Position numbers and translations under genes: made by a program. Positions 48,652 through 55,205 of a stretch of 64,000 nt of DNA are shown piece by piece. Source of the DNA: Planctomycetia bacterium. GTDB lineage: Bacteria; Planctomycetota; Planctomycetia; Pirellulales; Thermoguttaceae. The stretch is taken from positions 1-64,000 of the forward strand of contig JAUNBK010000009.1 of NCBI GenBank assembly GCA_030527105.1, written 5' to 3'. Numbering within the stretch: the first letter of the stretch is position 1; each line of letters begins with the position of its first letter. Below the pieces are notes generated by a model that did not search any database, was not told where the DNA came from, and was given only the letters and a program-made list of their open reading frames with translations.

Positions 48652-51312
48652 TTAAGGCAGTGCGATAAAACCAGGAATCTCCTTGAGGTTTTTCACGGGG
48701 CGCATCTCTCGAAGCTCACGAGACGGCTTCCAACCGGGCGTGAGAAGGCAGCCGACTACGGCAGCTTCGGGCGAAAGCGTCTCCGAAACCGTATACTCGC
48801 TCGCTCCCACCGCCAGTCCCTCGAGATTCGCGAATCGACGCCAAATGGGCAAGCCGTTTCGCACTGCTTCGGAGTACGCCCCGATGTCGTCGATTTTGTC
48901 GTGTGGAAACTGCGCTTTCGGAAGCAACGGAATGTTGAGACCCTCGAATTTATGATCGACGCGCTCCGTGCAAAAGAGCCCCCACGCCAACTCGACAGCA
49001 GGGCGCGCAAGCCCGTACGTATTTCGATACGGTGTGATTCCGGGGACGAATTCGACGATCCGATCTTCGTACGACGGCAGGTCGAGGAAGCGCGCGGGAT
49101 AGGTTTGTCCCAATCGCGACGTCATGCTCGACCCGGTGGGATTGGCGCCCATCTGCCAGTCGTGGCAAAGGAACGCTGCGTCGCGATATTTCGTGTCGCC
49201 GCTAATCTTCCACGCAAGAATGAAGCATCGACCACGATTGAGCGGGTGAAAATTCCCCCACGACGTGTGCGACACATAAGCGTGATTGTGTGCGTACCAC
49301 GGCATACGATATTGGTAGTTGTTGTCCAACTCGAGAAGTCGCGTGTCGGCAAGGCGAATCATAGCGTCGCAAATATTCTTGTAGACCTCCGCAAATTCGG
49401 GAAGATTCTTCGCTTCGACGATAAATTCGGCGAAATAGAAGGGCGACCCGCGCCACAAAAGGTCGGCGACGAGTTTGTCGAAACCGAGAGGACGAAATTG
49501 TTCGAAATCCTCCAAATACTTCTTATCTTTCGTGAGCAAGTAGAGATTGAACGCCGTTTTTGCGAGTTCCGCGCCGCGCAGGACGTCCGACTCGCGATAC
49601 GTCAAATCGATCGGTGTGACTTTGCCACCCTCTCGATAGGGGTAGTTTTTGTATTCGTACTCGACACGATTGTTTTTGTCCGTTGCGTATTGATACGCCT
49701 TGATGGCGGACTGTAGGAAGAGATTAGCGCGTTTTTCGTCGCCAGCTTTTTTGAGCGCCCACGCCAGCGAGGCGGCATAGGCGGAATATTGCGCGGTACC
49801 TTCCATCGTCGGCAGGGCGAGAAAATACGGCTGCTCGTCGGTGGCAGGGATGTAGTTCCCCGGATGGCTCGACGCTTCGATCCAACAGCCGACGCCCCCT
49901 TTTTCGTTTTGCGCTTTCCGCCAAACGTCTGTGCCCCAGACGGCTTCGTCAAGAATGTCTGGCACTCCGTTCCCACTTTCGGGGAGATTCAGTTGGTTGT
50001 CGGAGAAATTTTCCGGGCAAAGGAGGTAGGCCGCCACCAAATCGCCGACACACTCCAAGTGGAACGGTCGTCGGTCGTAGTCTGCCGCATCGTGCCACCC
50101 ACCATGAACGTTGGGGAGCTTCGTTTCGGTCTTGCAATACTCACGAATGATCGTGAATTGGTCGGTTTTGTACTTTTTTCCATCCTTGTCGAAAAAGCCC
50201 CCGCCCGCGTCGTTCGTTCCGTAGTGGCGTGTGTTGGGTGGGAAGCAGCCTTGCCACGTCGTCATGTGGCACCCACGCGTAGGATTCTCTTTTTTCATCT
50301 CGTCTGGGACGTAAGACTCCCACGCGGTGTAGGGTTTTTGTTGGAGCGTGCCGCAGCGTTTGTGGTACATGCCGCGCGCTCGGACGTAGAACGACTTGCC
50401 GATTGCGTCGTTGTGGATTTGAAAGCGCCACGACCGCCCGACGCCGGGGACGTAAATTTGGTAGGTGCCTTCTGTGTTGAAGTCGGAAAAATCGAGGTCG
50501 CAAACGAACTCGCCAGAGAATTTATCGATCTCCTCGGAGAGATTTCGCGCGACGATTTCACCCCGATAGACTTTTCTCTCTTTTTGGTCAACGATGAAAA
50601 AGGGCTTCCCCACCCATTGCGAGTAGTCCCTTTTTTGGAGATTTGGACCGAGCCACGCACCCAAATAGGCATATTTTCGCCCCGCCATTGGTGAGTATCC
50701 CTCCTGATTCACCTTGATTGCTTCGGAGCGCTGCGACTCGCTATACGAGAAAACGACATTCTCCCCCAAAGGGTTCGTGAGCGTGTATTTTTCGCCATCA
50801 TTGAGCGGTTGTGCGAGGACGAGATAAGCATGATGAGAAATCTCCGCCGATCTCGTGAGCGTCTCCCGCCCCGTCGCCATGTCGGGGAAGCGCCCCGCCG
50901 AAATCGGATTGACCCAATAATCGTGCCGCAAAATGGGTACCTCACGCCCTTTTGAGTCGAGAATCTTGAACCTCTTTTTCTCCTGATACGCCTTCGAAAT
51001 AATCGGACGATACGCAGCAATCACCTCCAACGCGGCAAAATTATAATGAAATCGTCGCGACCAATCTTTCGGGGCATACTCCGGCTCCTCCAACATACGA
51101 AGGAAAGGACCGCATTCTTCTTTGAATCGCTCAATGAGGAAGTCCTGGTAGTAGCCCGTGAGACAAATGTGCGTAGCGTCGATTTGCGCGACGCGGAGGT
51201 ATCCCTCGATCTTCGGCGGCTGCTCGGGTGCCGTGCGACGCGGAATCGGAATCTGGGCGCCGTATGAAAGCGCCGGCATTAAAGCGGCGAGAATAATCAG
51301 CGCTCTGAACAT
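48652..51312 (-). CDS. Secreted glycoside hydrolase family 9 enzyme
   Basis: An 886-aa protein. ATG 51312 (MFRALIILAALMPALSYGAQ, a signal peptide) has AAGGAG seven bases upstream. After about 220 N-terminal residues of unknown fold comes a CelD-N Ig-like domain (KVNQEGYSPMAGRKYAYLGA, about 212-320) and an (alpha/alpha)6 catalytic domain (about 325-850). GGWHDAADYDR is the GH9 catalytic Asp motif; LPESGNGVPDILDEAVWG, FHPLNRGRCFILAW and WQMGANPTGSSMTSRLG are further GH9 signatures. Expected activity is endo-glucanase or another beta-glucan hydrolase. No dockerin or CBM is seen. The catalytic Glu near the C-terminus could not be placed with certainty. Confidence 0.85.
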   Translation of the reverse strand: MFRALIILAALMPALSYGAQIPIPRRTAPEQPPKIEGYLRVAQIDATHICLTGYYQDFLIERFKEECGPFLRMLEEPEYAPKDWSRRFHYNFAALEVIAAYRPIISKAYQEKKRFKILDSKGREVPILRHDYWVNPISAGRFPDMATGRETLTRSAEISHHAYLVLAQPLNDGEKYTLTNPLGENVVFSYSESQRSEAIKVNQEGYSPMAGRKYAYLGAWLGPNLQKRDYSQWVGKPFFIVDQKERKVYRGEIVARNLSEEIDKFSGEFVCDLDFSDFNTEGTYQIYVPGVGRSWRFQIHNDAIGKSFYVRARGMYHKRCGTLQQKPYTAWESYVPDEMKKENPTRGCHMTTWQGCFPPNTRHYGTNDAGGGFFDKDGKKYKTDQFTIIREYCKTETKLPNVHGGWHDAADYDRRPFHLECVGDLVAAYLLCPENFSDNQLNLPESGNGVPDILDEAVWGTDVWRKAQNEKGGVGCWIEASSHPGNYIPATDEQPYFLALPTMEGTAQYSAYAASLAWALKKAGDEKRANLFLQSAIKAYQYATDKNNRVEYEYKNYPYREGGKVTPIDLTYRESDVLRGAELAKTAFNLYLLTKDKKYLEDFEQFRPLGFDKLVADLLWRGSPFYFAEFIVEAKNLPEFAEVYKNICDAMIRLADTRLLELDNNYQYRMPWYAHNHAYVSHTSWGNFHPLNRGRCFILAWKISGDTKYRDAAFLCHDWQMGANPTGSSMTSRLGQTYPARFLDLPSYEDRIVEFVPGITPYRNTYGLARPAVELAWGLFCTERVDHKFEGLNIPLLPKAQFPHDKIDDIGAYSEAVRNGLPIWRRFANLEGLAVGASEYTVSETLSPEAAVVGCLLTPGWKPSRELREMRPVKNLKEIPGFIALP

Positions 51313-51443
51313 ATTGTTCTCCTTTTCTCTTAATCCTCCAGGGGGTGTCAAAAAAATGCAAAAAAAGAACGGCACGACTTATGGTCTAATGGATATTCCA
51401 CCATAAATCGCCCGTTTTTTCTCGAGTCGAGGAGGCTCGCACG

Positions 51444-53435
51444 TCAGCGGGCAAGCGTTCGTTTGCGGGAGACTCCCCGTCGCATGTAGACACCGCCAGC
51501 CAGCGCGAGAAGCAACAACGCCCACGAGGCAGGTTCCGGCGTGTAGTATTTCACCTCAAGATTGTCGATAAGTCCATAATAATTCCAACTGTACGCGGAG
51601 GAACTCAAAAGACCCAGAAGGTCGGTGGTATCGAACAAACTGCCAGCCAGCGAGGAATAATCGGCGGAAGATCCGGAGAGACTCACGTCGACAAGCGTGG
51701 CGCTCTCGCCATCTTCGTCGAACGCGAGCAGGAGCGACAGGGTGTACCAATCATCCTTGTTGAATTCCCCACCCTCATACGCAATGAGGTCGGACACCGA
51801 GTACGTCCCGTCCAAGTTGTCGTAGAAGTAGAGACGACCACTGGGATCAACGATAACACCATTGAATCCGATCCCAACCTCTTGGGTCAAACCACCAACA
51901 TCCTCGCTGTAGAACCCGAGACCGATGCCGCGCGCGTTCGCGCTATTATTATCGGTCTCAATCGTGTTCATTTTGAAGTCCATCGACATTTCGATCCACT
52001 CACCCGCGAGGACGGACTTGTCAATTGCCATCGTGCTTCCGCTGTTTGCTTTGGTGCGGAGCGCGCCGTTCTCTATAACGTTGTAGTAGCCCGTACCTCC
52101 TTCATGAAACACACCGCGCATTCCCCATTTGTTGCTTTCGCCCTCAGGAGTAAGGAAGTTGCAAATGTCCGCAGTGGTGTCTATCATGTACTTGCCATTG
52201 TTGCCCGTTCCGTTTGTTCCGCCGAACCCGGTCGCCAAGAGCAGCGACGTGCGACTTTTGTCGGCAGTCTGTCCCGCCACGATCTCATTCGATATCCCAT
52301 AAATATGGAGCGTGTCCGCCGCAGTGTTCGCAATGTTGAATGAAAGAGTTCCATCTGCGCTCGCGACGCCCGTCCACGTGACCAAGCCTCCGACAGGTGT
52401 GGTGCCGTCCGTGGTGAAATTCGACGCGTCGAACGCAATGGTGGTGCCGTCTGGTGCAGTGATCGTTCCGGGGCGAAGGCTATCGCCGAACTTCGCAAGG
52501 TAGAACGTGGTGGTGTATTCTTGCCCAGGGAGCAGATCCTTGAGCGTAATGTTGCTCGCGTTGTAGATGAAAGTTGCCATCGCTTGGCTCCCCGGATTGC
52601 TGTCGCCAAACGATGAACGCAGATTCGAGTCTGTCCCGTATGTACTGACCGCAGAGACCGAATACAAATCCGTAGAAGAGGAAGCCGAGGTAACGCCCGC
52701 GAAAGAGACGTTGTTGAGCGTGGTCGTCGAGGATGCCGCATTGCCAAAATTCAGCGTGTGCGTATACGTTTTGTCGGCATTCACGTTCGAGGTTGCGTCG
52801 CTTACCCAGAGCGACGTGGAGTCTGGAACCGTCCACGGATTGTCGACCGACGCGTCCTGAAGCGACACGGCGTCGAGCAGCACTGTGTTGTCGGTCGCGC
52901 TTGACTGCGTGTTGGCAAACGTTAGCGCGGTACTGCCAGAATCCGCCCGAAAAGTAACGGTATACGTTTGGTAGCCACCATCCGTCCTGTTATACTGCTT
53001 ATTGAAAACAGCCATGCTGCCGACTTTGGTATTCAGCGTGGTTTGGTAGTTTCTCGCGTTGTATTTGAACGTGAGGGTGTAGTAGTTGCCAGAAGTCAAA
53101 TTGATCGATTGCGCGACTTGCCCCTCGCGCTGCATAAAAAGAGCGTAATCCCCCTCCGCCACGAAAGGAACAAGGCTGGTCGTCGTCGCGACGTCCGTTC
53201 CGAAGCCGTAGTCCGTCGTCGTGGTGTTCGGAGTGTAAGTCCAACCGTCTACCTCTCCAGATATGGTTCCGTTCTTGTAGACGTAGTGGTGAGAGGTGGG
53301 GGTTCCACCATTGAGGGACCAATCCGTCTCCTCAAAACCACCATTGGTGATGTACTCTGCCGCCCGGGCAGGAGCGAGAAGACTCGTGGAGAGAATGGAT
53401 AACCCAAAAATTCCAACGCACAGCCATTTTTTCAT
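51444..53435 (-). CDS. PEP-CTERM sorting domain protein with CBM-like domains
   Basis: A 663-aa exported protein. Signal peptide KKWLCVGIFGLSILSTSLLA (to ARAAE). Residues about 27-195 look like a carbohydrate-binding jelly roll (ITNGGFEETDW, VAEGDYALFMQREGQVAQSI, YYTLTFKYNARNYQ). The middle is beta-rich, Thr/Ser-rich; about 410-630 may be a ConA-like domain (WIEMSMDFKMNTIETDNNSA). The C-terminus TPEPASWALLLLALAGGVYM then RRGVSRKR is a PEP-CTERM signal. It has the same sorting class as the protein at 17767 but a different body. It lies between GH9 and the 53.5-kb spacer, with 68 bp to GH9's far end. Probably a surface or matrix protein. Confidence 0.85.
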   Translation of the reverse strand: MKKWLCVGIFGLSILSTSLLAPARAAEYITNGGFEETDWSLNGGTPTSHHYVYKNGTISGEVDGWTYTPNTTTTDYGFGTDVATTTSLVPFVAEGDYALFMQREGQVAQSINLTSGNYYTLTFKYNARNYQTTLNTKVGSMAVFNKQYNRTDGGYQTYTVTFRADSGSTALTFANTQSSATDNTVLLDAVSLQDASVDNPWTVPDSTSLWVSDATSNVNADKTYTHTLNFGNAASSTTTLNNVSFAGVTSASSSTDLYSVSAVSTYGTDSNLRSSFGDSNPGSQAMATFIYNASNITLKDLLPGQEYTTTFYLAKFGDSLRPGTITAPDGTTIAFDASNFTTDGTTPVGGLVTWTGVASADGTLSFNIANTAADTLHIYGISNEIVAGQTADKSRTSLLLATGFGGTNGTGNNGKYMIDTTADICNFLTPEGESNKWGMRGVFHEGGTGYYNVIENGALRTKANSGSTMAIDKSVLAGEWIEMSMDFKMNTIETDNNSANARGIGLGFYSEDVGGLTQEVGIGFNGVIVDPSGRLYFYDNLDGTYSVSDLIAYEGGEFNKDDWYTLSLLLAFDEDGESATLVDVSLSGSSADYSSLAGSLFDTTDLLGLLSSSAYSWNYYGLIDNLEVKYYTPEPASWALLLLALAGGVYMRRGVSRKRTLAR

Positions 53436-53622: not shown

Positions 53623-53765
53623 TTTATAACGCACTGCGTCGAAATTTCCGGTTCCGTCCGCCGTTGGAGCTACGCACCACGACTCGCAAAGCGTCGCGCA
53701 AAACGGGAATCCTAAAGCACGATGAGCACATAACGCACTGCGTCGAAATTTCCGGTTCCGTCCGA
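53623..53765 (+). repeat. 105-bp repeat family: diverged forward copy plus a tandem 5' fragment
   Basis: 53623-53732: TTATAACGCACTGCGTCGAA, ATTTCCGGTTCCGTCCGCCG, TTGGAGCTACGCACCACGAC, GCGCAAAACGGGAATCCTAA, AGCACGATGAGCACATA. At its end the 5' part starts again (ATAACGCACTGCGTCGAAAT, TTCCGGTTCCGTCCG, 53730-53765), giving a truncated tandem unit with the same unusual start. The surrounding 53436-53825 stretch contains nothing else recognisable. Confidence 0.88.
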
Positions 53766-53825: not shown

Positions 53826-53854
53826 TTGCAAAACTTGCCCTGAGGTGTTATACT
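53826..53854 (+). promoter_or_regulatory. Promoter of the structured RNA
   Basis: TTGCAA (53826-53831), a 17-bp spacer, TATACT (53849-53854). The predicted start is near 53861, with no coding gene for 380 bp. Confidence 0.65.
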
Positions 53855-53860
53855 TAGGTC

Positions 53861-54103
53861 AGAAGGTGAGGGGTTTCCTTCACACCTTCAAAACCTTCAA
53901 CGACCAGACCGGTGGGAAACACATATTGGTGAGCCGATAATGAGCTCGTAAGGGACTCGTATAATCAAGACTTCGAAGAATGTATAGGCGTGTATCCTCA
54001 CACGAGGAACGCGCATCAACAGGATATTGAAGCTCGAGTATCCGCCTTAAATCTACGGGCTCTCCAATACTCTTGCCAACTTGGTGCGGTTGAAGGTTTT
54101 TTT
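53861..54103 (+). ncRNA. Structured non-coding RNA, about 240 nt; 6S RNA-like architecture possible
   Basis: AAAACCTTCAAC (53889-53900) is perfectly complementary to GTTGAAGGTTTT near 54089-54100, closing about 190 nt and followed by a T-run to 54103. Nested inside: TATTGG-GAGCC (about 53923-53934) with GGCTC-CCAATA (about 54058-54069), TAAGG/CCTTA and ACTCG/CGAGT, and a terminal GCGT-CCTC/GAGG-ACGC hairpin. A small hairpin (GAAGGTG/CACCTTC) lies at the 5' end. A long irregular rod with a closing stem is the layout of 6S RNA, but I found no sequence signature proving it. tmRNA and RNase P signatures are absent. Confidence 0.55.
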
Positions 54104-54245
54104 ACAAATTTTGAACTGAACACTCCTATCGTGTTTTTGGACGCATCGTTCCTTTCGATGCACTCTTTTTTGAACGCTGTTCCATCTTTGAGTGGCAGGG
54201 CGTTCATAGCGCTTCCTTTCCACTTCCCAACAGCCCCATTTGAGT

Positions 54246-55205
54246 ATGACTATGAAAATCGCCGGGACTCAAACGATTGCCGACCACCGACGAAATATTA
54301 TTTTGAGCGTCAATCCAAAAGCAGGACGGCGTTCCTCCAAAAAACGAACAGAACGACTCGCGTCGGCGCTGCGTGCGCTCGGCTTCGACGTCGATGTCCA
54401 GACGGATCTCCAAATCGTCGCCGAGAAGGCAAACGCTCTGCACGCGGAGGACAAATTGCGTGCCCTCATTGGAATCGGAGGGGACGGCACCGCAGCGGAA
54501 CTCACCAACCGCACCGTGCCGGGGGTCCCAATTGCGCTCCTTCCGAGCGGCACCGCGAATATTCTCGCGAAACACCTGAAATATAGTTTTCGTCCCGAGA
54601 AATTCGCACGAATGATCGCCGCAGGTCGCGTCGCGCAGATGGATGCCGCGCAAGCCAACGGGCGTATTTTTCTCGCCATGATTGGGTGTGGTTTCGATGC
54701 CGAGGTGGTGGCGCAGGTGCACGACGCACGGATGAGAAATCCCAAAGGCGCGCATATCAATTATTTTTCATACATCAAGCCGATTTTGAAGTCGATCGCG
54801 TCGTATCCCTACCCGAAAATTCGCACGGAGATTCTCGACTCGGAGTCGGGGGCAGAGTCGCAAGCGTACGAGACGGAGTGGGCGTTTTTGGCCAACCTTC
54901 CTCGATATGGTTGGGGAGTTCCGCTTGCGCCGCGCGCGCTCTTTGACGACGGATTGCTGGATTTGACGCTTTGGCGCGGTGGGTCGTTGTATCAAGGGCT
55001 TAAGTTGGCGCTTTTCGGGCAGTTGGGCGGTTTGCATCGCTTTTCGAGTCGCTGCACGATGGAGCCGGGCAAGGTGTTTCGTTTCTCCGCTGCCGAGAGC
55101 AATCCCGACGCGCAAATTCCCTACCAGCTCGATGGCGACCCGGCAGGCATGCTCCCCGTGGACGTCAAAATTTTGGAGCGACGACTGACGATTTTTGTGC
55201 CGTAG
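54246..55205 (+). CDS. Diacylglycerol/lipid kinase family protein (YegS/BmrU type)
   Basis: A 319-aa lipid kinase-like protein. LSVNPKAGRRSSKKRTERLA, then the signature GIGGDGTAAELTNR (about 78-91) and LLPSGTANILAKHL, typical of the DAGK catalytic domain; MIGCGFDAEVV and LFDDGLLDLTLWRG belong to the C-terminal beta-sandwich, with YQLDGDPAG near the end. It probably phosphorylates diacylglycerol or another lipid at the cytoplasmic membrane. Starts ATG 54246 or 54252. The gene is preceded by the structured RNA and followed by the YraN gene after 22 bp. Confidence 0.88.
   Translation: MTMKIAGTQTIADHRRNIILSVNPKAGRRSSKKRTERLASALRALGFDVDVQTDLQIVAEKANALHAEDKLRALIGIGGDGTAAELTNRTVPGVPIALLPSGTANILAKHLKYSFRPEKFARMIAAGRVAQMDAAQANGRIFLAMIGCGFDAEVVAQVHDARMRNPKGAHINYFSYIKPILKSIASYPYPKIRTEILDSESGAESQAYETEWAFLANLPRYGWGVPLAPRALFDDGLLDLTLWRGGSLYQGLKLALFGQLGGLHRFSSRCTMEPGKVFRFSAAESNPDAQIPYQLDGDPAGMLPVDVKILERRLTIFVP

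What the first reader, a model, noticed from the sequence alone, without database searches (positions are those of the whole stretch)
53826..54103. Structured plus-strand RNA with own promoter and terminator
TTGCAA-17-TATACT, then a 240-nt region closed by a perfect 12-bp stem (AAAACCTTCAAC / GTTGAAGGTTTT), nested helices and a T-run. The rod-like fold suggests 6S RNA or a new class. There is no coding potential and it lies in an 800-bp intergenic region.
Basis: partly seen in the sequence, partly recalled or inferred. Interest (0 to 1): 0.6.

Follow-up and report, generated by a model that had tools for sequence, protein, structure and literature searches.

The report
Divergent 6S RNA of Pirellulales bacteria
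This 210-base stretch encodes a diverged copy of 6S RNA, a small RNA that elsewhere blocks the main RNA polymerase when cells stop growing; the Rfam 6S model misses it here, and a genome paper reported the gene missing from this bacterial group.

Summary
Window 53890-54103(+) is a rod-shaped RNA with its own extended -10 promoter and a terminal stem plus T-run. It is present once in all eight genomes of the genus; 27 of 60 pairs covary (0/500 shuffles). Rfam's 6S model does not detect it, even at E<=10. A chain of models does. A covariance model built only from other Pirellulales (R2) finds the window RNA (E=2.7e-12 per genome). Across Planctomycetota the same model hits the place that Rfam's 6S model hits in 58 of 64 cases outside the order, never another place. 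The central-bubble motif GAGCCGAUA matches E. coli 6S at its product-RNA start (U44); the first nine predicted pRNA bases, AUCGGCUCA, are the same. A second helix covaries: distal 5' bubble GAGCUCGU with 3' strand ACGGGCUC, like the 'central bubble collapse helix' of B. subtilis 6S-1. In folding calculations it replaces the downstream helix once the pRNA site is occupied. The published statement that Thermogutta terrifontis lacks 6S is contradicted: R2 finds it in the genome of exactly that length. New member of a known kind; no expression evidence.

The parts
53826..53854 (+). sigma-70-type promoter TTGCAA-17-TATACT with TG before the -10
   Evidence: sequence; same arrangement TTGnAA...TGnTATACT in the aligned congeners and best-scoring promoter matches of 9-10/12 in several of them
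53862..53889 (+). 5' leader hairpin between the inferred transcription start (about 53861) and the closing stem; seen in this genus
   Evidence: folds in six congeners with differing stem sequences, -6.9 to -14.3 kcal/mol; many other Pirellulales have a promoter ending 3-16 nt before the closing stem instead
53890..54103 (+). 6S RNA body: closing stem, central bubble, apical arm, closing stem with T-run terminator
   Evidence: fold z -5.5; covariation; R2 hit 53891-54100, 56 bits; R3 111 bits (but R3 includes this sequence)
53890..53901 (+). closing (terminal) stem, 5' arm AAAACCTTCAAC
   Evidence: exact complement of 54089-54100; 5 of 12 pairs of helix 1 with double changes in congeners
53924..53935 (+). 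downstream helix (P2), 5' strand UAUUGGUGAGCC
   Evidence: pairs with 54058-54069; GAGCC/GGCUC standard in all 36 aligned sequences with a C-G to U-A double change
53931..53938 (+). GAGCCGAU: template for product RNA, predicted start opposite U53938; predicted pRNA 5'-AUCGGCUCACCAAU
   Evidence: identical to E. coli ssrS GAGCCGAU ending at U44 (L253); U44 as TSS from PMC8876501
53942..53949 (+). [quoted passage not shown]
   Evidence: pairs with 54055-54062; covariation 4 of 6 pairs; refolding computation
54055..54062 (+). ACGGGCUC: shared 3' strand, pairs either with GAGCC (downstream helix) or with GAGCUCGU (collapse helix)
54089..54103 (+). closing stem 3' arm and T-run (intrinsic terminator)
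   Evidence: sequence; T-run conserved in congeners

Best explanation
A 6S RNA gene (ssrS) of a Thermoguttaceae bacterium (order Pirellulales). The RNA is transcribed from its own sigma-70-type promoter, ends at its closing stem and T-run, and folds into a rod whose central bubble imitates an open promoter. It occupies RNA polymerase holoenzyme with the housekeeping sigma factor. When nucleotides return, the polymerase copies the bubble from U53938 into a short product RNA (5'-AUCGGCUCACCAAU), which unzips the downstream helix. The freed 3' strand ACGGGCUC then pairs with the distal bubble GAGCUCGU (central bubble collapse helix), and the RNA falls off. Shown here: structure, covariation, homology to 6S, the two alternative helices and their computed exchange. 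Inferred from known 6S RNAs: expression, polymerase binding, pRNA synthesis, growth-phase role.
For: Single copy in all 8 genus genomes; 27/60 pairs with double changes, 94.5% of cells paired, 0/500 shuffles and far above slid controls. R1, from congeners only, hits all 12 loci that RF00013 found in relatives. R2, built without the genus, finds the window RNA at 2.7e-12 per genome and 98 of 197 order genomes, one hit each. Outside the order R2 and RF00013 pick the same place in 58 of 64 hits and never different places. Three order members reach Rfam's 6S cut-off, with GAGCCGA aligned to the 6S consensus helix and bubble. First nine bases of the predicted pRNA are identical to E. coli. Collapse helix: 98.6% paired, 4/6 pairs with double changes; its mean pairing probability rises from 0.13 to 0.75 when the pRNA site is blocked, and the freed strand pairs with the distal bubble at 0.77, against 0.09 when that bubble segment is shuffled.
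Against: RF00013 itself does not match the window RNA, and a Planctomycetota-trained model (R3) does not match E. coli ssrS, so membership rests on a chain of intermediates. No transcript, polymerase binding or pRNA has been observed. The pRNA in the folding test was modelled only as a block on pairing.
Confidence: 0.93

Rival explanations
1. A 6S-like RNA that has changed its target, as Ms1 in Actinobacteria binds core polymerase without sigma; the extra 5' hairpin of this genus would then be part of a different binding mode.
For: 5' hairpin in this genus; [quoted passage not shown]
Against: The pRNA template GAGCCGAU and the collapse helix, which matter for templated release from holoenzyme, are conserved in the genus. 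The sequence-level 6S homology found here argues for retained function.
Confidence: 0.04
2. A cis-regulatory leader of the downstream lipid-kinase gene (54240-55205) that happens to be structured.
For: The same kinase gene lies next to it in 5 of 8 congeners, and a second terminator-like hairpin lies between (54143-54161).
Against: No kinase gene within the fetched flanks in G001, G004 and G005 nor in the other-family loci tested; the RNA ends in its own T-run before the gene; homologs are hit as 6S by Rfam.
Confidence: 0.02
3. A new structured RNA class unrelated to 6S.
For: No Rfam match for the window sequence itself.
Against: 58 of 64 coincident hits with RF00013 outside the order; same motif at the same place of the bubble as E. 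coli.
Confidence: 0.01

Closest known systems
6S / SsrS RNA, RF00013 (E. coli ssrS)
   Same: Rod with central bubble; GAGCCGAU at the pRNA start; GAGCC paired with GG(C/U)UC as the downstream helix; own promoter; single copy; about 210 nt
   Different: Scores below detection with RF00013; extra 5' hairpin; closing stem doubles as terminator; release switch looks like a collapse helix rather than E. coli's 9-bp 3'-bubble hairpin (PMC8876501)
[quoted passage not shown] here the same two segments can pair and covary
   Different: Different sequence; different predicted pRNA (B. subtilis pRNA begins GUUCGGUC, PMC8876501)
Ms1 RNA of Actinobacteria
   Same: 6S-like rod; extra hairpin outside the rod
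   Different: Ms1 is about 300 nt, has hairpins at both ends and binds core polymerase (PMC9130861)

Membership tests
6S RNA (RF00013) | Rod: closing stem, central bubble, apical arm with loop | tested here: met
   Consensus fold and covariation on 8 congeners
6S RNA (RF00013) | Homology to curated 6S sequences by covariance model | tested here: met
   Indirect: no direct RF00013 match, but R1 and R2 link the window to loci that RF00013 identifies
6S RNA (RF00013) | pRNA start site in the 5' central bubble next to the downstream helix | tested here: met
   GAGCCGAU identical to E. coli through U44; invariant in the genus
6S RNA (RF00013) | Rearrangement that unwinds the downstream helix on pRNA synthesis | tested here: inconclusive
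   Supported in silico by covariation and constrained folding; not shown in the laboratory
6S RNA (RF00013) | Direct score above Rfam's gathering threshold (an annotation criterion of one model, not a biological property of 6S RNA) | tested here: not met
   three other order members do reach it
6S RNA (RF00013) | Abundant ~200 nt transcript, binding to sigma-70/A holoenzyme, pRNA synthesis | not testable with these tools
   No expression or binding data available
RNase P RNA | RF00010 match | tested here: not met
   The genome's RNase P RNA lies elsewhere, C182:363-762
Ms1 RNA | Binding to core polymerase without sigma | not testable with these tools
   Only the extra 5' hairpin is a resemblance

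The most novel reading that the evidence does not exclude
Pirellulales carry an overlooked 6S clade whose release from polymerase works through a pRNA-triggered swap of one 3' strand between two helices, with base changes in the shared strand matched in both partners; this would be comparative evidence that the central bubble collapse helix, so far inferred and tested by mutation in a few species, is selected for across an order.
Probability: 0.6. Interest if true: 0.5.

Novelty: new member of a known kind. Interest (0 to 1): 0.42.

Why it matters
6S RNA sets how much of the main RNA polymerase is free, so its presence or absence changes how a group's growth control is understood. The Thermogutta terrifontis genome paper reports no 6S homolog and cites a survey reporting it absent from Pirellula staleyi and Rhodopirellula baltica (PMC5673643). 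The gene is in T. terrifontis and in about half of the order sampled here; the Rfam cut-off misses nearly all (3 of 197 reach it). The alignments offer a way to improve the Rfam 6S model for this group, and the covarying alternative helix gives point mutations and rescues to test.

Tried and rejected
RNA families at default and at E<=10 on the window: no 6S hit; a weak Pseudomon-Rho hit (21.9 bits, cut-off 45) lies outside the RNA (54136-54222) and is taken as chance. R3 against E. coli ssrS: no match at E<=10, so a direct one-step link was not obtained. RNase P RNA excluded. tRNA/tmRNA: none in the window. The first alignment of congeners had three loci on the wrong strand and was redone. RNAalifold on the mixed 36-sequence alignment lost the outer stems because the genus has a different closing stem. 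The 6S survey of Wehner et al. 2014 is not held; its statement is quoted second hand from PMC5673643. A set of 34 genomes, mostly negative with R2, was searched with R3 and looser filters: besides two congeners and G058, none of which had been in the R2 sample, only G144 turned positive.

Full report
WHAT WAS CLAIMED. A plus-strand structured RNA at 53826-54103 with promoter, perfect 12-bp closing stem and T-run; perhaps 6S RNA, perhaps new. The gap between flanking genes is 804 bp.

IS IT A REAL GENE? A nucleotide search of 60 relatives found it in all seven other genomes of the genus and in none of the genomes outside the genus at that sensitivity. Aligned, the eight sequences keep long invariant blocks in the middle (TTGGTGAGCCGATA, AGCTC, GGGCTCTCCAAT) while the arms drift. 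The consensus rod has 60 pairs; 27 show changes on both sides in at least one sequence, 94.5% of cells pair, no shuffle of 500 reaches any of the measures, and sliding the partner by 1-3 columns drops pairing to 34-47%. Single-base indels between congeners argue against coding. The promoter is conserved as TTGnAA...TGnTATACT in most congeners. Across 50 members of the wider family, 24% have an upstream promoter match of at least 9/12 against 3.3% in shuffles.

WHAT IS IT? Rfam finds nothing here. In a first set of 14 genomes the only 6S signal was one sub-threshold hit in G017 (34.7 bits, cut-off 46.4), and that locus carries TTTTGGTGAGCCGATA...CGGGCTCTCAAAA, the same core as the window RNA. 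I therefore built models step by step. R1 (eight congeners, core only) hit 35 of 197 genomes of the order, one place each, and all 12 loci that RF00013 had picked. R2 (26 sequences, none from the genus) finds the window RNA at 53891-54100 (56 bits; 2.7e-12 per genome) and 98 of 197 order genomes. Run over 294 genomes of the phylum, R2 gives 64 hits outside the order; 58 coincide in place and strand with RF00013 hits, 6 have no RF00013 hit in that genome, none lies elsewhere. RF00013 passes its own cut-off in 73 of 294 phylum genomes but in only 3 of 197 in this order. The conclusion that the family is 6S RNA rests on this coincidence and on Rfam's own alignments of L010 and L011, which place GAGCCGA at the consensus downstream helix and bubble. 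A caution: R2's training set includes 12 loci first found with RF00013 (and confirmed by R1), so R2 is not wholly independent of RF00013; R1 is.

COMPARISON WITH E. COLI. In ssrS of MG1655 (L253) the bases ending at position 44 are GAGCCGAU; U44 is the pRNA start (PMC8876501). The window has the same eight bases at 53931-53938. Predicted product RNAs: E. coli AUCGGCUCAGGGGA, window AUCGGCUCACCAAU. A one-step covariance match between the Planctomycetota model R3 and E. coli ssrS was not found.

HOW IT LIKELY WORKS. Two pairings compete for one strand. The downstream helix pairs GAGCC (53931-53935) with GGCUC (54058-54062); it is standard in all 36 sequences of the order alignment and has a C-G to U-A double change in two. 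In Thermogutta the A-U pair is replaced by G-C. The alternative pairs the distal bubble GAGCUCGU (53942-53949) with ACGGGCUC (54055-54062): 98.6% of cells of its six-pair core are paired, four of six pairs change on both sides, 0/500 shuffles reach the covariation score. In L046 and L017 a G-to-A change in the shared 3' strand is matched by C-to-U in both partners. [quoted passage not shown] subtilis and A. aeolicus. Folding 73 family rows (a few are duplicates), mean probability of the downstream helix is 0.77 and of the collapse helix 0.13; with the 14-nt pRNA site blocked the collapse helix rises to 0.75, and it rises in 70 of 73. With the 16-nt distal bubble shuffled, the freed strand pairs with it at 0.09 instead of 0.77. 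For the window RNA: 0.97 downstream helix free, 0.02 collapse helix free, 0.64 blocked. Outside the order the collapse helix weakens in several sequences (L089-L093). This is inference about mechanism from sequence and energy; no polymerase experiment exists.

DISTRIBUTION AND NAMES. [quoted passage not shown]). The identification of G030 rests on that equality of length. R2, which contains no sequence from it, hits it at 768873-769081, minus strand, E 2.3e-9. A pattern scan of named genomes returns Pirellulales, Thermoguttaceae, Pirellulaceae and a Pirellula sp. contig of 1,113,433 bases, the length of G048's contig, plus some chance matches in other phyla. R3 finds 100 of 197 order genomes. 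One large family (f16) is mostly negative even when rescored with looser filters, so the reported absence may be true for Rhodopirellula-like genera, by loss or by divergence beyond these models.

LOCAL PECULIARITY. In this genus a 5' hairpin of about 28 nt sits between the promoter and the closing stem, folding in six congeners with different sequences, whereas many other Pirellulales have the promoter right next to the closing stem. It may protect the 5' end or be trimmed off; untested. Next to the RNA lies a YegS-type lipid kinase gene in five of eight congeners, so the neighbourhood is only partly conserved.

VERDICT. Ordinary in kind, useful in detail: a diverged 6S RNA in a group where it was said to be missing, with comparative support for a known but thinly sampled release switch.

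Noticed in passing
53626-53660 and 53730-53764: Exact 35-bp direct repeat ATAACGCACTGCGTCGAAATTTCCGGTTCCGTCCG, 104 bp apart, upstream of the 6S promoter; the 31-bp core occurs only these two times in the genome, even with 3 mismatches.
   Followed up: partly
54143-54171: A second terminator-like hairpin with T-run between the 6S RNA and the lipid-kinase gene.
   Followed up: no
G436 C12:1007727-1007911 and C1:274202-274386: The only genome with two 6S hits by both R2 and RF00013; possible 6S paralogs or assembly duplication.
   Followed up: no
order genomes of family f16 and several Thermoguttaceae genera (g20, g28, g57): About half of the order gives no hit with R1-R3 or RF00013; possible repeated loss of 6S.
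   Followed up: partly
48652-53435, minus strand: A glycosyl hydrolase family 9 enzyme gene next to a DUF642 protein with a C-terminal PEP-CTERM-like tail (tail judged by eye).
   Followed up: no
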